Assembly (NCBI GenBank): GCA_902606745.1
Contig: CACLHR010000004.1
Span: forward strand, 1-64,000
From: an uncultured Gammaproteobacteria bacterium
GTDB lineage: Bacteria; Pseudomonadota; Gammaproteobacteria; PS1; Pseudothioglobaceae
DNA: 64,000 nucleotides
Direction of reading: 5' to 3'
Numbering within the stretch: the stretch's first letter is position 1; each line of letters begins with the position of its first letter. Below are positions 46,688-59,749 of this stretch, piece by piece. The notes beneath the pieces are model-generated. The model searched no databases. It was not told the DNA's origin and worked only from the letters and a program-made list of their open reading frames with translations. The translations under genes and the position numbers were made by a program.

Positions 46688-47572
46688 ATGGAAAATGGAA
46701 AATCTATAAAAAATACAAATTTGGTTGAAAAGTTTCAAAAGGACGGCTTTGTCGTTCTTGAAAATGCGTTAACTGATTCTCAATTGTTGGCACTCAATAG
46801 TGACTTATCAATGTGGGTTGAAGAGAGCAGAGGAAATGAAAAGTCTTACGGAAAAATCATGGATGGAAGGCCACGTTTTGATTTGCAACTAGATACCCAT
46901 TCATTTGATAACCCTGCACTTAGAAGAATAACTTCGCCTGCCGAAATTTCACAAGCATGTCTCGATGTGGTTAAAGATAATACAGCTCTAGATTTTGTTA
47001 GTGAAATTTTTGGACCAAATATCAAGCACTGGACGAATAAAATCAACCTTAAACTTCCAGGCTCTGGCACGGAGGTGAAGTTCCATCAGGATTTCCCTTA
47101 TGAACCGCATTCAAATGAAGACATCATGACAGTTTTATATTTCCTTGATGACGTCACACTTGAAAACGGGCCCTTAGAGGTTATTGCGGGTTCACACAAC
47201 GGACCTCTTTATTCGCTATGGCATGACGGCGTTTTTACTGGCGCCGTTTCACCAGAAATTGAAGCCGAATGTAAAACAAAGGCTATTAGTTGTGTAGGCA
47301 AGGCAGGTTCGGCATGTTTGATGCATTCCAAATTAATGCATGGTTCTAAATCAAACAAAACTCAATCCGCACGCTCTCTGTTTATTGTTTCTTATACAGC
47401 AGAAGACGCAGTCAATCTTGCTGAAAATCCTCTCCCAAGTAAATTAGATGGCATGATTGTTCGAGGCAAGAAAACTGGTATCGTTCGTTCTACTAGCTAT
47501 AGTGTCGAATTGCCAGAGTATCCTCAAGAGGTATCATTCTTCGACCAGCAATCCAAAATGAAAGATATTTGA
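46688..47572 (+). CDS. PhyH-family Fe(II)/2-oxoglutarate dioxygenase, PhnY-like candidate
   Basis: 294 residues. The iron ligands are His133 and Asp135 (KFHQDFPYEPH) and His218 (LMHGS); Arg229 is placed to bind 2-oxoglutarate. This is a complete phytanoyl-CoA dioxygenase-type fold. PhnY, which hydroxylates 2-aminoethylphosphonate, belongs to this family. Its gene lies 30 bases before a TmpA-like dioxygenase and the PhnZ/TmpB-like HD oxygenase, so a phosphonate C1-hydroxylase role is plausible. Other substrates (ectoine-type, other amines) cannot be excluded by sequence alone. Confidence 0.68.
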   Translation: MENGKSIKNTNLVEKFQKDGFVVLENALTDSQLLALNSDLSMWVEESRGNEKSYGKIMDGRPRFDLQLDTHSFDNPALRRITSPAEISQACLDVVKDNTALDFVSEIFGPNIKHWTNKINLKLPGSGTEVKFHQDFPYEPHSNEDIMTVLYFLDDVTLENGPLEVIAGSHNGPLYSLWHDGVFTGAVSPEIEAECKTKAISCVGKAGSACLMHSKLMHGSKSNKTQSARSLFIVSYTAEDAVNLAENPLPSKLDGMIVRGKKTGIVRSTSYSVELPEYPQEVSFFDQQSKMKDI

Positions 47573-47602
47573 TTATCATTCGCAATTTTTTAAGATATTG
47601 GC

Positions 47603-48754
47603 ATGTCACAGATAAAAGAGCTCATAATAAAACTCTCTATTGCTGATGATGAGTTAGTCATTGAGTGGTATGACGGCAAGGAAAGTCGACTATATAGCCA
47701 GTGGCTGCGCGATCATTGCCAAATGCCAACGTCTATAAATACCGATAATGGACAGCGCCTGTTCAGTGTCGTCAATATACCCAAAGAAACCTACATCGAA
47801 AAAGCCTATCAGGATGACAAAGGAAATGTCTGTGTCCGCTTCCAACCAGAAAATCATATGTCTGTTTTCTCACAGAGCTGGTTAAGAAAGAATTGTTATG
47901 ACCTTAATCTTCATTTCGATGACAGAAGTGAGAAACAAAAACATTTATGGCAAAAAGACAGTTTCAAGGATGGTTTACCGTTTATTAATTACGAATCCAT
48001 GTGTAATGACGAGAGTATTAAGCTGGATGCATTACGTTTGGTCAGAGATATTGGTTTTTTTGTTCTTGAAAATGTCCCAACTGCCGAAGGTCAAGTTTTA
48101 AAAGTTATTAGTGAGTTGGGTTACACTCGAGAGACAAATTATGGAGCCTTATTTGAAGTAAGAACTGAAGTCAATCCCAATAACCTTGCTTATACCAACA
48201 TGGGACTCGGATCTCACACCGATAACCCTTACAGAGATCCTGTGCCAACAGTGCAGCTTTTGCATTGTCTAGATAGCTCCACAGAGGGTGGAGATTCAGT
48301 GCTAGTTGATGGTTTTAAAGCAGGCACTGTTTTACGTCAAGAAAGTAAAGAAGATTTCGACATCTTAACCAACACCTGGGTTAATTTTCGCTTTTCAGAT
48401 GAAGCAACTGATCTTCGCTCTAGAGTGCCGTTGATTGAACTAAATGATAGCAGTGAAATTGTCAAAGTGAGGTACAACAATCGCTCAATTGACACAATAA
48501 AATTGCCTGCAAAAAAAATCCGGAATTTTTACAAAGCCTATCGTCATTGGAGTGAAATTATTGAAAGAGAGGACTTAAAAATTACATTTAAGCTCTCAGA
48601 GGGCGATTTAATACTACTTGATAACACCCGTATAATGCATGCCAGAACAGCCTTCTCTAAAAAAGGAAAGCGTCATTTACAGGGTGCCTATACCGACCTA
48701 GACGGTCTTTACAGTCTGCTCAATGTTTTGGAGAATCAACAACAAAATGGATAG
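47603..48754 (+). CDS. tmpA: gamma-butyrobetaine-hydroxylase-like dioxygenase, TmpA-like
   Basis: 383 residues. The N-terminal domain of the BBOX type contains WLRDHC at 34-39, but only Cys39 of the usual Cys/His zinc set is obvious. The TauD-type catalytic domain has His205 and Asp207 (GSHTDNPYRDPVPTVQLLHCL) and distal His346 (NTRIMHARTAF). TmpA enzymes of this family hydroxylate 2-(trimethylammonio)ethylphosphonate instead of gamma-butyrobetaine. The assignment rests on context: the stop overlaps the start of an HD oxygenase of the TmpB/PhnZ type by eight bases. Taken alone it would be called gamma-butyrobetaine dioxygenase. Confidence 0.7.
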   Translation: MSQIKELIIKLSIADDELVIEWYDGKESRLYSQWLRDHCQMPTSINTDNGQRLFSVVNIPKETYIEKAYQDDKGNVCVRFQPENHMSVFSQSWLRKNCYDLNLHFDDRSEKQKHLWQKDSFKDGLPFINYESMCNDESIKLDALRLVRDIGFFVLENVPTAEGQVLKVISELGYTRETNYGALFEVRTEVNPNNLAYTNMGLGSHTDNPYRDPVPTVQLLHCLDSSTEGGDSVLVDGFKAGTVLRQESKEDFDILTNTWVNFRFSDEATDLRSRVPLIELNDSSEIVKVRYNNRSIDTIKLPAKKIRNFYKAYRHWSEIIEREDLKITFKLSEGDLILLDNTRIMHARTAFSKKGKRHLQGAYTDLDGLYSLLNVLENQQQNG

Positions 48755-49310
48755 GATTGGTGCTGACAGTATTGTCAATCATATCGAAGATGTATTTAGA
48801 CGTCGTGGTTCTGAGTCATACTTAGGCGAGCAGGTTACCATGGCTCAACATATGCTACAAACCGCACAATGTGCTGAACTAGCAGGTGCAGTTGGTAGTC
48901 AAATTGTTGCCGCTCTATTGCATGATATTGGTCATTACAAAAACGAAATCCCAGAAACATCTTTAGCGAAGGGTATTGATAATTTTCATGAAGAGGCGGG
49001 CGCTAATTTTTTGGAAGATTACTTTCCAATATCTGTTGTAGAGCCTATTCGTCAGCACGTTGCTGCAAAACGTTACCTATGTGCAGTTAAGTCAGACTAT
49101 CTCGAGCGACTTTCTCCTGCTTCTGTTCGCACTCTTAGTCTGCAAGGTGGACCAATGAATGCAATAGAAATAGTAGAATTTGAAAGAAATGACTATTTGG
49201 AACAGTCTATACAGCTGCGTTACTGGGATGATGATGGAAAAGACCCTGATAGAGTGCACCCACCCTTTTCTTACTATCGCTCTTTGATTGAATCTCTCAT
49301 CAAACACTAA
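48747..49310 (+). CDS. tmpB: HD-domain mixed-valent di-iron oxygenase, TmpB/PhnZ-like
   Basis: 187 residues from the ATG at 48747, which overlaps the preceding stop; a farther upstream ATG at 48723 would add eight residues. Against remembered PhnZ it keeps the YLGE lid (Tyr and Glu), the first His (QHML), HD of LLHDIGHYKN, His of FHEEAGANFL, HVAAKRYL with Lys, LQGGPM and the final Asp in RYWDDDGKD. Thus every expected iron ligand is there. Such enzymes cleave the C-P bond of 1-hydroxyphosphonates with O2, giving phosphate plus a carboxylate (glycine for PhnZ, glycine betaine for TmpB). Confidence 0.82.
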   Translation: MDRIGADSIVNHIEDVFRRRGSESYLGEQVTMAQHMLQTAQCAELAGAVGSQIVAALLHDIGHYKNEIPETSLAKGIDNFHEEAGANFLEDYFPISVVEPIRQHVAAKRYLCAVKSDYLERLSPASVRTLSLQGGPMNAIEIVEFERNDYLEQSIQLRYWDDDGKDPDRVHPPFSYYRSLIESLIKH

Positions 49311-49407
49311 TTATTTGAGTTGCCATATAGTCCTAATATTGAAACGTACGACACATCCTCATTCGGAAAGTATAATACTGTTCTAATAAATTGAACTCAT
49401 CCACCTA

Positions 49408-49878
49408 ATGAAAAACAATAAATTACTAATAATGAACGGCCCTGGGCTCTCAGATTTAAGTAACTACAATGAGAGGGGTTATGGCCACCTAACATTAGAC
49501 ATAGTTCAAAAAAAATGTGCAGAAACTTGTAAAATTTTCGGTCTTAAAATGGACTTTCGCCAAACGGATGATGAGGCTGAGTTATCTCGTTTTTTAAAAG
49601 ATGGTATTGAAGATTTTGATGCTCTAATAATTAACCCAGCTGGATATTCTCATGTGTCATCCGTGGACTATACTATTTATAGTTCTGCAATCAAAACAAT
49701 CACTCGACAAAACAAGCCAGTTATTGAAGTGCATATTTCAAATATTTTTCAACAAGGTGTTGAAAATACTAAGCCAATACAAGTTCCAAAATGCGAAGTG
49801 GGTTTTGTAAGCGGGCTTGGCATTCATAGCTATGATCTTGCTATTAGGGCAGTTAACAAGAAACTCAGAAAAAATTAG
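49408..49878 (+). CDS. divergent AroQ-family protein, probably not a dehydroquinase
   Basis: 156 residues of the type II dehydroquinase fold. It keeps NGP near 10-12, a Tyr at 25, Asn76 and His82 (INPAGYSH) and Glu107/His109 (PVIEVHISN). It lacks the SNxEGE strand (TDDEAE instead) and the REEFRHHS block with the substrate-binding arginine, so normal dehydroquinase activity is doubtful. The stop is immediately followed by the start of a canonical AroQ, suggesting coexpression or a mixed oligomer. Function unknown; intact and unlikely to be a pseudogene. Confidence 0.7.
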   Translation: MKNNKLLIMNGPGLSDLSNYNERGYGHLTLDIVQKKCAETCKIFGLKMDFRQTDDEAELSRFLKDGIEDFDALIINPAGYSHVSSVDYTIYSSAIKTITRQNKPVIEVHISNIFQQGVENTKPIQVPKCEVGFVSGLGIHSYDLAIRAVNKKLRKN

Positions 49879-50331
49879 ATGAATATATACGTTATAAATG
49901 GTCCAAACATAAATCTTCTTGGCACTCGTGAACCAGAAATTTATGGCAAGGAGACGTTAAAAAGTATCTCAAAAAAATGTATACAGCAGGGCTTGAAAGA
50001 TGGACATGATGTTAAGTTTATGCAATCTAATTATGAAGGAGAAATAGTTGAATGGATTCAGAATGCAATCACTGAGAAAGTTGATGCAATTGTTATCAAT
50101 GCTGCTGCTTATACTCACACATCAATAGCAATTCATGATGCATTGAAATCATATTCTGGTTTCAAAATAGAACTACATATTTCGAATCCACATTTGCGTG
50201 AAACTTTTAGACATGTTTCCTATATTTCTTCAGCAGTGGACGCGATTGTTGCCGGACTTGGTCCTGACGGCTATAGTCACGTGATCGAATTATTGGCGGA
50301 TCTCCAAAAGCACTATAAACAAAAAAAATAA
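49879..50331 (+). CDS. aroQ: type II 3-dehydroquinate dehydratase-like protein
   Basis: 150 residues with the full catalytic set, one number below M. tuberculosis AroQ: Arg17, Tyr22 (TREPEIYG), Asn74, His80 (NAAAYTHTS), Asp87, Glu98, His100 (IELHISN) and Arg111 (RETFRHVSY). It would dehydrate 3-dehydroquinate in the shikimate pathway. Arginine before Asp87 in most members is His here. Its location among betaine/phosphonate genes, rather than beside accB-accC, is unusual, so a non-shikimate role is possible. It abuts the preceding paralogue with no gap. Confidence 0.8.
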   Translation: MNIYVINGPNINLLGTREPEIYGKETLKSISKKCIQQGLKDGHDVKFMQSNYEGEIVEWIQNAITEKVDAIVINAAAYTHTSIAIHDALKSYSGFKIELHISNPHLRETFRHVSYISSAVDAIVAGLGPDGYSHVIELLADLQKHYKQKK

Positions 50332-50354
50332 AAGCCTCAATACCTGTTAAGAAA

Positions 50355-51257
50355 TTATCTCGTTTTTGAGAATAACTCTCTACGCATCATATCAATGTGG
50401 TCTGTATGAACACCACAGCAACCACCGATAAAATTTATACCACGCTGTTTCCATTTAGAAGAATATGTACAATAGCCCTCAGCCGAAATTACGTTATTAA
50501 ATGTCCAATCACCACCTATAGATGTTCCAGAATGTGCATAGATGCCGATATTGCCATTCCACTCACTCTGAAGAATATCTAAGCATCGATCAACATATTC
50601 AACCTCTGTGTGCATTATATTTATTACATCTGGGTTGTATGATTTCAACTCATGAATGGTGTCTTCTAGGCTATCTCCATCTAGCAAACACATTTTTTGT
50701 GATTTGTCAGGCTCACAAGTAAGCCCTACCCAAACAGGTAGTCCAGAAGCTTGAGAAGCTTTCAGTGTAGTCATCATCTGCTCTATGTCAATCATCATTT
50801 CAAGCATTATTAAATCTGCACCGGCGTCTGCCATAATTTTTGCTTGCTGAGTAATCGAAGAATTTAGTTCACTCAAAGAAGGTTTGTTGCCAGTCCAGGT
50901 CCAATAGGAAATACCTCCAGCAACCAAAACATTGTCTTTATTCAAGTTCTCTCTTGCTTCAACAGCAAGTTTTACAGCACGTTCATTCAAAACTTCAAAG
51001 TTATGACCTTCATCGGCATCAGATAGAGCATGCTTATTCGTTGAAAAAGTGTTACTAATTACAATCTCAGCTCCTAGATTAATATAGTCTTCATGAACTT
51101 GTCTTAAAATTTCAGGATGACTTAGAGCCGCTGCACCGTTCCAAGCGTTTTTGTGTTGAGGCACTCCTCTACGTTCAACTTCTGTACCAGTAGCTCCATC
51201 TATTAATATGCATTCTCCATCCTTAGCTCTTTTCATTAAACTACTGTATCTGTCCAT
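50355..51257 (-). CDS. homocysteine S-methyltransferase-like protein (betaine demethylase candidate)
   Basis: 300 residues of the homocysteine S-methyltransferase barrel: DGATGTEVERRG at 20-31, ISNTFSTNKHAL at 67-78 and the C-terminal zinc pair Cys280-Cys281 in GGCCGVH. The third zinc ligand, normally a Cys in an N-C motif after strand 6, is missing: residues 211-216 read VINIMH, leaving His216 as a possible substitute. Beside a dimethylglycine dehydrogenase gene, a glycine betaine to homocysteine transfer is the simplest guess, making dimethylglycine and methionine. The changed ligand leaves room for another methyl donor or acceptor. Confidence 0.72.
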   Translation of the reverse strand: MDRYSSLMKRAKDGECILIDGATGTEVERRGVPQHKNAWNGAAALSHPEILRQVHEDYINLGAEIVISNTFSTNKHALSDADEGHNFEVLNERAVKLAVEARENLNKDNVLVAGGISYWTWTGNKPSLSELNSSITQQAKIMADAGADLIMLEMMIDIEQMMTTLKASQASGLPVWVGLTCEPDKSQKMCLLDGDSLEDTIHELKSYNPDVINIMHTEVEYVDRCLDILQSEWNGNIGIYAHSGTSIGGDWTFNNVISAEGYCTYSSKWKQRGINFIGGCCGVHTDHIDMMRRELFSKTR

Positions 51258-51282
51258 AAATTGCTCCTTTTAAATAATTGAA

Positions 51283-53718
51283 TTATATTTGTAAACGCTT
51301 ATGACTGGGATCGTATGGTCCAGCTGTAATAATCTCAACTGGTACCAACTCTCCTAGAAGATCTAGTGTAAGTTTGGCCCCAATCTTGGATTTGTTAGGG
51401 TCTACAAAGGCATAGGCTAAATTCATGCCAACACGATGACCCCAATCACCTGAGGTGATTGTGCCGATCACTTTGTTGCCGTCCATTAACGAGGCTCCGC
51501 TGTGAGCAGGTGCATGGCTACACTTAATGATGAGACTTACTAGTTTCTGATTTGGTCCTTCCTTGAGGCGTTTTTCAAGGGCCGACTTACCGATAAAATT
51601 ACCTTTGTCCAAGGTTACGAAACGATCAAGTCCGGTTTCAAAGGGATCAAATTCAGTTAGCAAATCAGACTTCCAAGAAAGAAATCCTTTTTCCATTCGC
51701 ATCGACTCCACTGCACGCAAACCAAAGATCTTCATTCCATGCGCTTCACCCGCTTTTCTAAGTGAAAGATATGCCGCATATAGAGATTCATTTGGTACAT
51801 GGATTTCATATGCCAGTTCTCCAGAAAAGCTGACCGACATGACGGTAGCGGCAGAGAAACCAATAAAGCATTCTCTCACACTAAGCCATGGGAATGGTTC
51901 TTTACTCCAGTCTTCCCTGCTGCAAGCTGAAAGGACATCTCGAGCTTTAGGTCCGGCTAACAGCAAGATTGTTTGATCGTTTGTTAGGCTTTTAATCTGT
52001 ACTTTCTCGTTGTAATTAATATGCTGAGTTAACCAATCCATATCATGAAATTCTGATGCCGCAGCCGATCCATACCAAATCCGATTTTCACCTCTATCTG
52101 AAGCAGGGATATTGGCGATAGTTGCTTCACTTTTCACCATTCCAAAATCGTTAAGCAGATATCCCAATCCAACACGACCAGGCTTGCGAGTTACAGGTTT
52201 ACAAAACATTCGATCAAGGAAATTATAAGCGTCTGGACCTTTGATCTCGAAGCGATTAAATCCGTTCACTTCACAAAGCCCAACATTATCTCGAACATTT
52301 TTGACCTCGTCTGCAACTATTTCAAATGTCTCATCGAAATGAAATGATAGTGAAGGATGGAAGTCAACAGAAGGTTTTATATATTCAACCCTCTCCCATC
52401 CATTGACAACGGTAAACTCAGCGTTTTCAGCAGCTAAAACTGCTGTTAAAGAAGTAGTTTTAGCTGGCCTACCTGCTGGGCGATGTTCATGTGGAAAATG
52501 GAAACGAAATTCATTTTGATAATCTTCTACAGCTTTTAATGAGGTCAATTCAGTATTGGCATGAGCCGTGAATCTGCGTGGATCAATACACCAGGTATCA
52601 TAGCAAGACTCACCGTGTACAATTTGCTGGGCTAGTAGCCAGCCATGTCCGCCACCTTCACCCAAACCTGCTCGAAGACCGATAATACAGTAAGCATTGC
52701 GCTTACTAGGAATAGGTCCAACCAATGGAGCGCCATCAATTGTATAGGTAATTGGTCCATTAATAATACTGCGGATGCCTGTTTTTCTAAGAACAGGCAT
52801 TCGAGCGAAAGCTCCTTCCAAAACATCTGCTACTCGGTCTATGTCGTCTGGACATAGTGCATTAACAAAGCTCGGATCGATTCCATCCATCCCCCAAGTC
52901 TTACAGTTCTGCTCATAGAAACCGATCAAGAGTCCATTCTTTTCCTGGCGACAGTAATAATCAGAAATCGGACAGCGGAGAAGAGGCATCCGGTGACTCG
53001 CCTGCTTAATGGCAAAAATATCTTCGGTCAGGAAATATTGATGCTCCATAGAGGCGACTGGATGTTGTACGCCCATCATCGCTCCAACCTCATTGACACG
53101 ATAACCGCATGCATTAACTACGATATCGCAGTCAATATTGCCTTTTTCAGTGTGCACATTCCACTCTCCGTTTTCATACTGTTTCAGAGCAATTACAGGC
53201 GTTTCTGTATAGACTTCTGCCCCAGCTTTTCTTGCTCGCCTAACCAAAGATTGACACAACTGGTAAGGGTCAATATCACCGTCAAGAGGATCCCAAAGAC
53301 CTCCAAGTAGATTGTTCGTTGATATCAAAGGATGACGACGCAGGCATTCTTCAGCATCTATTATTTCAAAGTGAACATTCATACCTCTTGCCATAGAGGC
53401 AAAATGACGATAGCCTTGCATTTGTTCTTCAGTATTTGCCAAACGAATCCCACCATCTCCATGGTGATAGGTAATCGGATAATCTGGATCATCGCTCAAC
53501 TCTTTGTATAGGTTTATGGAATGCGTTTTCAGTCCAACCATTGTCTGATTCATACCAAAATTAGTCACCTGAGCAGCTGAATGCCATGTAGTACCGCTAG
53601 TTAGTTCGTTGCGTTCAACTAGAACAACGTCTGACCAGCCTTCCTGAGTCAGGTGATACAGAGTAGAGCATCCCGCTATACCACCACCAATGACAACAAC
53701 TCTAGTTCGTGATTTCAT
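51283..53718 (-). CDS. dimethylglycine/sarcosine dehydrogenase-like flavoprotein with GcvT domain
   Basis: 811 residues. The N-terminal FAD domain (about 1-390) opens with VVVIGGGIAGCSTLYHL; SGTTWHSAA at 41-49 carries the histidine used for covalent FAD in this family. The C-terminal half (from about 430) is a GcvT-like tetrahydrofolate-binding domain, ending in the barrel segment GTITSGDWGHRVGMNLAYAFV. Members oxidise N-methyl groups of dimethylglycine or sarcosine and hand the formaldehyde unit to tetrahydrofolate. The methyltransferase gene follows after 25 bases on the same strand. Confidence 0.85.
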   Translation of the reverse strand: MKSRTRVVVIGGGIAGCSTLYHLTQEGWSDVVLVERNELTSGTTWHSAAQVTNFGMNQTMVGLKTHSINLYKELSDDPDYPITYHHGDGGIRLANTEEQMQGYRHFASMARGMNVHFEIIDAEECLRRHPLISTNNLLGGLWDPLDGDIDPYQLCQSLVRRARKAGAEVYTETPVIALKQYENGEWNVHTEKGNIDCDIVVNACGYRVNEVGAMMGVQHPVASMEHQYFLTEDIFAIKQASHRMPLLRCPISDYYCRQEKNGLLIGFYEQNCKTWGMDGIDPSFVNALCPDDIDRVADVLEGAFARMPVLRKTGIRSIINGPITYTIDGAPLVGPIPSKRNAYCIIGLRAGLGEGGGHGWLLAQQIVHGESCYDTWCIDPRRFTAHANTELTSLKAVEDYQNEFRFHFPHEHRPAGRPAKTTSLTAVLAAENAEFTVVNGWERVEYIKPSVDFHPSLSFHFDETFEIVADEVKNVRDNVGLCEVNGFNRFEIKGPDAYNFLDRMFCKPVTRKPGRVGLGYLLNDFGMVKSEATIANIPASDRGENRIWYGSAAASEFHDMDWLTQHINYNEKVQIKSLTNDQTILLLAGPKARDVLSACSREDWSKEPFPWLSVRECFIGFSAATVMSVSFSGELAYEIHVPNESLYAAYLSLRKAGEAHGMKIFGLRAVESMRMEKGFLSWKSDLLTEFDPFETGLDRFVTLDKGNFIGKSALEKRLKEGPNQKLVSLIIKCSHAPAHSGASLMDGNKVIGTITSGDWGHRVGMNLAYAFVDPNKSKIGAKLTLDLLGELVPVEIITAGPYDPSHKRLQI

Positions 53719-57268: not shown

Positions 57269-59196
<1,928 letters not shown>

Positions 59197-59245: not shown

Positions 59246-59749
59246 ATGGTTAAGATTAGACTAGCCCGAGGTGGAGCCAAGAAAAAACCTTTTTATTCGA
59301 TTGTAGTAAGCGATTCTAGAAAGAGAAGAGATAGTGGCTATATTGAGCGTATTGGATACTTTAATCCTGTTGCTCGCGGACAAGAAGTAAGGCTTCAACT
59401 TGAAGAAGATAAACTGGCATATTGGATTTCACAAGGTGCACAGATTTCTGATAGAGTGAAGCAATTGGCCAAAGAATATAAAGATCCTTCAATTCGTGAA
59501 AAATATCTAGCTGCTAAAACAGCAAAAAAGGCCGCAGCAGAGAAAGCTAAATTAGATGCAGAGGCAAAAGCAAAAGCTGAATTAGAGGCTGCAGCAAAGG
59601 CTGAAGCAGCTGAAGAAGTTCCTGCAGAGGAGGCGCCCGCAGAGGAAGCTCCAGTGGAAGCGGCAGCTGAAGAAGTTCCTGCAGAGGAGGCACCCGCAGA
59701 GGAAGCTCCAGTAGATGAAACATCGGCGGAAGAGAAAGACGCTAAGTAA
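59246..59749 (+). CDS. rpsP: 30S ribosomal protein S16 with long acidic repeat tail
   Basis: 167 residues; S16 is usually 80-90. Residues 1-80 are canonical ([27 protein letters not shown]). The rest is a tail: a Lys/Ala-rich helix-prone part (about 82-118) and then an Ala/Glu/Pro repeat of [14 protein letters not shown](V) type. In DNA it is a 57-base repeat (copies from 59606 and 59663). It starts the rpsP-rimM pair; rimM begins four bases after the stop. Confidence 0.95.
59606..59713 (+). repeat. 57-bp tandem repeat inside rpsP
   Basis: Two copies of a 57-base (19-codon) unit starting at 59606 and 59663, the second slightly truncated. They encode [19 protein letters not shown]-type residues and differ at a few bases. 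Because the unit is a multiple of three, copy-number change would keep the frame. Confidence 0.85.

What the first reader, a model, noticed from the sequence alone, without database searches (positions are those of the whole stretch)
46688..53718. Phosphonate-to-glycine-betaine-to-dimethylglycine gene block
Seen: a PhyH dioxygenase, a BBOX-like dioxygenase overlapping an HD oxygenase by eight bases, then a homocysteine methyltransferase-like gene and a dimethylglycine dehydrogenase-like gene. Known: TmpA/TmpB convert 2-(trimethylammonio)ethylphosphonate to glycine betaine and phosphate; PhnY/PhnZ convert 2-aminoethylphosphonate to glycine and phosphate. Inference: one locus takes methylated phosphonates to phosphate, betaine, dimethylglycine and sarcosine, feeding methionine and folate one-carbon pools. 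The product of the first module is the substrate of the second, so the arrangement is metabolically coherent; I do not know of a described locus joining the two modules.
Basis: partly seen in the sequence, partly recalled or inferred. Interest (0 to 1): 0.88.

Follow-up and report, generated by a model that had tools for sequence, protein, structure and literature searches.

The report
Methylated-phosphonate degradation genes beside betaine catabolism
A small-genome, probably marine bacterium carries the known two-enzyme route that turns a methylated phosphonate into phosphate and glycine betaine, sitting next to an enzyme that probably dismantles the betaine further, so one molecule could give the cell phosphorus, carbon, nitrogen and energy.

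Summary
All genes named are present at the stated coordinates; two tandem dehydroquinase genes lie between the blocks and were not mentioned. The core is a genuine tmpA-tmpB pair (2-trimethylammonioethylphosphonate to glycine betaine and phosphate): the TauD protein groups with the validated TmpA, carries its phosphonate-binding Arg, which BBOX lacks, and in three sibling genomes TmpA and TmpB are fused in one ORF. The pair is conserved across the genus: a new, deep-branching member of a known pathway. The junction to betaine breakdown is only partly as proposed. The 811-aa flavoprotein is a dimethylglycine-dehydrogenase relative; its ortholog also lies next to tmpAB in an unrelated alphaproteobacterium, and next to sarcosine oxidase or mtgB genes in siblings. 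But the "homocysteine methyltransferase" lacks BHMT betaine-binding and zinc residues and is unlikely to be the betaine demethylase; that step is most likely the cobalamin-dependent mtgBCD operon found elsewhere in the same genome. The PhyH gene travels with tmpAB in most siblings, but its relatives elsewhere are unconnected with phosphonates. Most tmpAB loci lack the dmgdh neighbour, and here it occupies a variable site, so functional coupling is plausible, not shown.

The parts
46688..47572 (+). PhyH-family Fe(II)/2OG oxygenase, substrate unknown; co-travels with tmpAB in most siblings
   Evidence: PF05721 E 1.8e-26; HxD...H and Arg columns kept; model closest to GriE leucine hydroxylase, proline hydroxylase H11 and EctD; conserved upstream of tmpA in most siblings
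47603..48754 (+). tmpA: 2-(trimethylammonio)ethylphosphonate dioxygenase (hydroxylase)
   Evidence: phmmer 315 bits to TmpA 6npb vs 186 to human BBOX; NF049936 427 bits, cut-off 400; 10 of 10 diagnostic columns as in Leisingera TmpA; TmpA clade
48747..49310 (+). tmpB: HD-domain mixed-valent di-iron oxygenase cleaving the C-P bond (longest ORF from 48723)
   Evidence: 180 bits to TmpB 6npa vs 107 to PhnZ; YxxE loop Y25/E28 and H35, H59-D60, H81, H104, D161 kept (roles from PMC8177086); fused to tmpA in three siblings
49408..49878 (+). divergent type II dehydroquinase-like paralog; no evident role in the pathway
   Evidence: PF01220 E 5.4e-25 but below NCBIfam aroQ cut-offs; 'GTREPEIYG' becomes 'SNYNERGYG'
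49879..50331 (+). aroQ, type II 3-dehydroquinate dehydratase; bystander
   Evidence: PF01220 E 4e-52; NF003806 over cut-off
50355..51257 (-). PF02574 homocysteine-S-methyltransferase-like protein with altered zinc site; not a typical BHMT
   Evidence: PF02574 E 2.8e-49; GGCC kept, GVNC replaced by IMHTE in all siblings, Tyr77 position S/T
51283..53718 (-). dimethylglycine-dehydrogenase-like flavoprotein (DAO + GcvT folate domains)
   Evidence: 504 bits to mammalian DMGDH 4p9s, FAD-linking WH motif kept; ortholog at 62% beside tmpAB in L080

Best explanation
tmpA and tmpB (47603-49310) form a two-enzyme oxidative phosphonate-degradation module. TmpA (Fe(II)/2OG/O2) hydroxylates carbon 1 of 2-(trimethylammonio)ethylphosphonate (TMAEP); TmpB (mixed-valent di-iron, O2) cleaves the C-P bond, giving phosphate and glycine betaine. 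The betaine is then demethylated to dimethylglycine by the cobalamin system MtgB-MtgC-MtgD encoded elsewhere in the same genome, and the window's DMGDH-like flavoprotein takes dimethylglycine to sarcosine and a folate one-carbon unit, so TMAEP can serve for phosphorus and then as a methylated-amine nutrient. Shown by sequence here: family membership, catalytic residues, conservation, fusion, and presence of all these genes in one genome. Inferred: substrates, reaction order, co-regulation. The adjacent PhyH oxygenase and the methyltransferase-like gene have unassigned roles.
For: TmpA: 6npb 315 bits vs human BBOX 186; NF049936 over cut-off. The BBOX model TIGR02409 is not discriminating, because the validated Leisingera TmpA also passes it, at 434 vs 415. 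TmpA binds phosphonate through N187, N287 and R288, BBOX through two Asn only (PMC9296572); the window has Asn/Asn/Arg plus Tyr/Phe/Asn cage positions as in TmpA, while BBOX relatives without an HD neighbour mostly have W/H/F/A instead of Arg. Tree: the window falls among HD-adjacent TmpAs, with BBOX-type plasmid homologs and human BBOX outside. TmpB: 6npa 180 bits vs PhnZ 107; YxxE and metal ligands kept. tmpA-tmpB fused into one roughly 580-aa ORF in G001, G019 and G026. DMGDH: 504 bits to mammalian DMGDH; OFTM307 (L080) has 10 DMGDH-family genes, and the one beside tmpAB is the window ortholog (1139 bits, next 594) with an mtgB-type gene (61% to the sibling mtgB) near by; in siblings the ortholog lies by soxBDAG (L200) or mtgB (L201, L202). 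The genome has mtgC-metF-mtgD-RACo-mtgB-FTHFS on contig 24 and no full-length MetH hit, matching the betaine-demethylating MtgBCD system reported in SUP05 and other marine bacteria (PMC12478193).
Against: TmpB scores 242, below NCBIfam's TmpB cut-off of 300, and identity to the validated pair is only 43% (TmpA) and 48% (TmpB), so a related quaternary-amine phosphonate could be the true substrate. Only about 5 of the roughly 65 tmpA-bearing loci inspected have any DMGDH-type neighbour. In the genus, the dmgdh site between aroQ and acnB is variable (ammonium transporter, ferritin-like, HAD, nothing) and the more complete genomes have 4-7 DMGDH paralogs, so chance proximity is not negligible. tmpAB and DMGDH lie on convergent strands with aroQ between. 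MtgB substrate specificity cannot be read from sequence. No Pho-box enrichment; no transporter in the block.
Confidence: 0.68

Rival explanations
1. tmpAB works as described, but the DMGDH/methyltransferase pair is an unrelated passenger in a variable site next to aroQ: ordinary co-location without pathway coupling.
For: The aroQ-acnB interval holds different cargo in different siblings; orthologous dmgdh sits at other loci in G001, G006, G019 and G022; about half of tmpAB-bearing siblings lack the ortholog; opposite strands.
Against: The same ortholog, out of 10 paralogs, is beside tmpAB in a distant alphaproteobacterium; another DMGDH-type gene directly abuts tmpA/tmpB in Sneathiella phosphonate clusters.
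Confidence: 0.35
2. The TauD enzyme is a gamma-butyrobetaine hydroxylase making carnitine and the HD protein is an unrelated phosphohydrolase.
For: TIGR02409 scores higher (512) than the TmpA model (427).
Against: Validated TmpA also passes TIGR02409; Arg at the phosphonate-binding position and the other nine columns as in TmpA; fusion and near-universal pairing with the HD oxygenase.
Confidence: 0.05
3. Two hydroxylases feed one HD oxygenase: PhyH acts PhnY-like on another phosphonate and TmpB cleaves both products, widening the substrate range.
For: PhyH directly upstream in most siblings, PhyH and tmpAB both found or both missing in most of the genus; other PhyH oxygenases pair with HD oxygenases in L065, L069, L070 and L124.
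Against: Those PhyH proteins are only 22-26% identical to the window's; the closer family (45-51%) sits with amino-acid ABC transporters and other genes, none of them phosphonate genes; PhyH is unlinked from tmpAB in G001 and G019.
Confidence: 0.15
4. The homocysteine-methyltransferase-like gene is a betaine-homocysteine methyltransferase performing the betaine-to-DMG step.
For: PF02574 fold; about 25 bp downstream of DMGDH; Trp44 position kept.
Against: BHMT Tyr77 and the first zinc Cys replaced in all siblings; best curated models are not BHMT; bacterial Bhmt homologs other than SAR11's lack betaine-binding residues and act as MtgE (PMC12478193); mtgBCD present.
Confidence: 0.08

Closest known systems
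TmpA/TmpB of Leisingera caerulea (TMAEP to glycine betaine + phosphate; PDB 6npa-6npd)
   Same: Same two-gene order, domain families, catalytic and phosphonate-binding residues; tmpA-tmpB overlap here
   Different: 43%/48% identity; separate gammaproteobacterial/actinobacterial branch of TmpA; below NCBIfam's TmpB cut-off; fused in some siblings; PhyH upstream
PhnY/PhnZ (2-AEP) and the methylphosphonate PhnY*/PhnZ1 pair
   Same: 2OG hydroxylase plus HD di-iron oxygenase logic; a PhyH gene is present here too
   Different: HD protein nearer TmpB than PhnZ; the adjacent hydroxylase is TauD/BBOX family; PhyH only distantly like the methylphosphonate PhnY model (32 bits vs cut-off 500)
MtgBCDE glycine betaine demethylation of marine bacteria (PMC12478193)
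   Same: Complete mtgC-mtgD-mtgB operon with metF and RACo on contig 24 of the same genome
   Different: Not in the window; the window PF02574 protein has an altered zinc motif, so it is not shown to be MtgE
Mammalian dimethylglycine dehydrogenase (4p9s, 5l46)
   Same: Near full-length match (residues 2-799 of 811), covalent-FAD WH motif, folate domain
   Different: Only moderate identity; one of several paralogs; substrate untested
OFTM307 (Hyphomicrobiales, L080) locus mtgB-like - dmgdh - tmpA - tmpB - carnitine genes
   Same: Orthologous DMGDH beside tmpAB
   Different: Leisingera-type TmpA; mtgB and carnitine genes at the same site; no PhyH, aroQ or methyltransferase-like gene

Membership tests
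TmpA (TMAEP dioxygenase) | Fe(II) facial triad and 2OG Arg | tested here: met
   H205, D207, H346 and R357 kept
TmpA (TMAEP dioxygenase) | Asn/Asn/Arg phosphonate-binding set (N187, N287, R288), the Arg absent from BBOX | tested here: met
   N194, N293, R294 in the window; BBOX relatives lack the Arg (residues from PMC9296572)
TmpA (TMAEP dioxygenase) | Curated equivalog model over cut-off | tested here: met
   NF049936 427 bits, cut-off 400
TmpA (TMAEP dioxygenase) | Activity on TMAEP and not gamma-butyrobetaine | not testable with these tools
   needs enzyme assay
TmpB | H...HD...H...H...D di-iron ligands and YxxE loop | tested here: met
   roles from PMC8177086
TmpB | Curated equivalog cut-off (300 bits) | tested here: not met
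   242 bits; siblings with a full-length match 246-271, also below; so filed as a TmpB-like relative on the same branch, which works like TmpB, not as a cut-off member
PhnZ (2-AEP) | Closest to PhnZ among solved HD oxygenases | tested here: not met
   107 bits vs 180 for TmpB
Gamma-butyrobetaine dioxygenase | Non-Arg at the TmpA R288 position, no HD partner | tested here: not met
   Arg present, HD partner overlaps
Betaine-homocysteine methyltransferase | Betaine-binding Tyr77 and three zinc Cys | tested here: not met
   Tyr77 to S/T; first zinc Cys (GVNC) replaced, GGCC kept
Dimethylglycine dehydrogenase | DAO + FAO_M + GcvT architecture with WH FAD motif | tested here: met
Dimethylglycine dehydrogenase | Activity on dimethylglycine rather than another N-methyl compound | not testable with these tools
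   several paralogs per genome

The most novel reading that the evidence does not exclude
A streamlined, probably marine gammaproteobacterium fully consumes TMAEP: TmpAB releases phosphate and betaine, MtgBCD and the co-located DMGDH strip the methyl groups into folate, so one phosphonate feeds P, C1, N and energy, and the tmpAB-dmgdh junction was assembled independently here and in an alphaproteobacterium.
Probability: 0.4. Interest if true: 0.6.

Novelty: new variant of a known kind. Interest (0 to 1): 0.5.

Why it matters
To my knowledge TmpAB has been characterised biochemically from one roseobacter, and the carbon/nitrogen fate of its betaine product is not established. A conserved tmpAB branch in most of the sampled genomes of a small-genome genus, with the betaine-degrading machinery in the same cell, would turn TMAEP from a phosphorus-only substrate into a combined P, N and C1 source and would link two parts of the marine phosphorus and methylated-amine cycles. 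The natural TmpA-TmpB fusion is a compact, testable enzyme and supports the pairing without any assay.

Tried and rejected
BBOX/carnitine reading: rejected on diagnostic residues and tree. PhnY/PhnZ for 2-AEP: HD protein nearer TmpB. PhyH as PhnY: weak; the structure model only gives the general PhyH hydroxylase fold, and homolog contexts are not phosphonate. A 432-aa gene that follows tmpB in some siblings (L031, L032, L034) was tested as a corrinoid-type (URO-D-like) methyltransferase: only a marginal NCBIfam hit (E 4e-4), no Pfam family, a poor structure model (pLDDT 47) and no relative in 398 genomes of the phylum. Pho box: at chance level. Dedicated transporter: PhnD-type importers exist on contigs 5 and 10 of this genome but in few of the siblings searched, so there is no general link. 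TmpB in phage records: one P. aeruginosa phage-record hit (41%), not pursued.
Full report
OBSERVATION. The ORFs are as described. Pfam gives PhyH, TauD plus GBBH-like_N, HD, two DHquinase_II, S-methyl_trans, and DAO-FAO_M-GCV_T-GCV_T_C. The HD start at ATG 48747 gives an 8-base overlap with the tmpA stop. The block is therefore a plus-strand run (PhyH, tmpA, tmpB, aroQ-like, aroQ) facing a minus-strand pair (DMGDH then the methyltransferase-like gene).

ORGANISM. The window is contig 4 of a 1.36 Mb, 63-contig assembly about 82% complete, in a genus with 28 other held genomes. It has no name in the tools. Small genomes in the whole family, and an mtgC operon like that reported for SUP05/Ca. Thioglobus (PMC12478193), suggest that lineage; this is inference.

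TMPA. The TauD protein matches Leisingera TmpA at 315 bits against 186 for human BBOX. NCBIfam's BBOX model scores higher than its TmpA model (512 vs 427, both over cut-off), but the validated TmpA itself passes the BBOX model (434 vs 415), so that model cannot separate them. A sharper test uses published residues: TmpA holds the phosphonate with N187, N287 and R288, whereas BBOX has only two Asn (PMC9296572). Over 79 homologs plus TmpA and human BBOX, the window is identical to TmpA in all ten columns examined; nearly all HD-adjacent proteins keep the Arg and Asn set, with Tyr at the BBOX Tyr177 position and Asn at the Tyr205 position, while plasmid-borne homologs without an HD neighbour have W, H or F in place of the Arg, Phe at the Tyr177 position and Leu at the Tyr205 position. 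One exception class, DSPR, lacks the Asn set but keeps the Arg, and includes an HD-adjacent pair on a P. aeruginosa plasmid. In the tree the window lies in a gammaproteobacterial/actinobacterial branch inside the TmpA group; the group's basal support is moderate (90/86).

TMPB. The HD protein matches TmpB at 180 bits and PhnZ at 107. The di-iron ligands and the YxxE substrate loop are kept (functions from PMC8177086). It misses the curated TmpB cut-off (242 vs 300), as do all its siblings.

CONSERVATION AND FUSION. More than 20 genus genomes and one genome of another genus in the family have a strong TmpB match. In most, PhyH-tmpA-tmpB sits between nfeD and aroQ. In G001 and G019 the pyrE-nfeD-acnB region lacks the whole block; there, and in G026, tmpA and tmpB lie at another site, fused in a single ORF (583 aa in G019; open frames of 574-594 aa). 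Three genomes with the same fusion make a frameshift artefact unlikely. Single ORFs spanning both also appear in Streptomyces (L116) and Kitasatospora (L139).

LINK TO BETAINE BREAKDOWN. A scan of 84,980 species genomes returned 80 loci. In the Hyphomicrobiales MAG OFTM307 (L080), a DMGDH 62% identical to the window's lies upstream of tmpA-tmpB, with an MttB/MtgB-family gene before it and carnitine-type genes after. That genome has ten DMGDH-family genes and the neighbour of tmpAB is the ortholog. In three Sneathiella genomes a more distant DMGDH-like gene abuts tmpA or tmpB within a phnW-phnA cluster. On a P. aeruginosa plasmid, a TauD-HD pair is followed by choX and choline and aldehyde dehydrogenases. 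Most tmpAB loci show no such neighbour. Inside the genus the DMGDH ortholog is at this site in nine genomes and elsewhere in four: next to soxBDAG in G006, an mtgB-type gene in G001 and G019, and a glutamine-synthetase-like gene cluster in G022. A rough estimate of my own (5-6 paralogs in about 1.7 Mb) puts chance proximity of some DMGDH paralog within 10 kb at about 5-7% per genome of this genus; the OFTM307 orthologous adjacency is much less likely by chance for one genome, but about 65 loci were examined. I regard coupling as plausible, not shown.

THE MISSING STEP. The PF02574 protein keeps GGCC, but the GVNC motif supplying the first zinc ligand is IMHTE in all eight sequences, and the BHMT Tyr77 position is Ser or Thr (the roles of the human BHMT residues are from general knowledge). 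It should not be filed as BHMT. The same genome has, on contig 24, a cobalamin-binding protein, MetF-like reductase, pterin-binding methyltransferase, RACo-type reactivase, an MttB/MtgB-family protein (718 bits) and formate-H4F ligase in a row, with no full-length MetH hit (the assembly is incomplete). A 2025 study shows MtgC and MtgD are essential for betaine demethylation in Ruegeria pomeroyi and reports mtgC in SUP05 (PMC12478193). This supplies the betaine-to-DMG step.

PHYH. It co-occurs with tmpAB in most of the genus, but homologs at 45-51% identity elsewhere lie with amino-acid ABC transporters, a flavin-dependent oxidoreductase, racemase and allantoinase-like genes, or alone. The model's best structural neighbours are leucine, proline and ectoine hydroxylases. 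Role undecided.

LITERATURE. In the held open-access papers I found TmpAB described only from Leisingera and as a marine marker gene (PMC10574752, PMC8316502) and no description of a tmpAB-dmgdh locus. The original TmpAB paper is not held, so this absence is limited evidence.

VERDICT. New variant of a known kind: a deep-branching TmpAB member with natural fusion forms and a recurrent, not universal, neighbourhood with betaine-degrading genes.

Noticed in passing
window 57571-59196 (+): Adenylosuccinate lyase (PurB) carries an in-frame N-terminal HTH_3 DNA-binding domain (residues 9-63); most siblings match only the ~455-aa lyase part, G027 (L051) matches full length.
   Followed up: partly
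window 49408-49878 (+): Tandem divergent dehydroquinase-II paralog beside aroQ, conserved in the genus but evolving faster, with the region of the catalytic Arg changed.
   Followed up: partly
L031:10212-11510, L032:6353-7651, L034:8296-9597: A 432-433 aa orphan protein follows tmpB in several siblings; no Pfam family, marginal similarity to methylcobalamin:CoM methyltransferase, no relative in 398 phylum genomes.
   Followed up: partly
L034:3937-5043, L035:3200-4333, L071:15137-16243, L218:3926-5053: A second TmpA-like dioxygenase class with DSPR in place of NNNR, near the fused tmpAB and, on a P. aeruginosa plasmid, adjacent to an HD oxygenase and choline genes; possibly a different phosphonate substrate.
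   Followed up: partly
L047:11330-12118: A HalD/WelO5-like 2OG halogenase or hydroxylase inserted between PhyH and tmpA in one sibling.
   Followed up: no
window 59246-59749 (+): Ribosomal protein S16 with a roughly 100-residue Ala/Glu-rich C-terminal extension.
   Followed up: no
L257:9056-10612 (G000 contig 5): A phosphonate-binding protein fused to an ABC permease domain (PF12974 + PF00528), next to separate PhnD and ABC ATPase genes and a phage-type integrase-like ORF.
   Followed up: no
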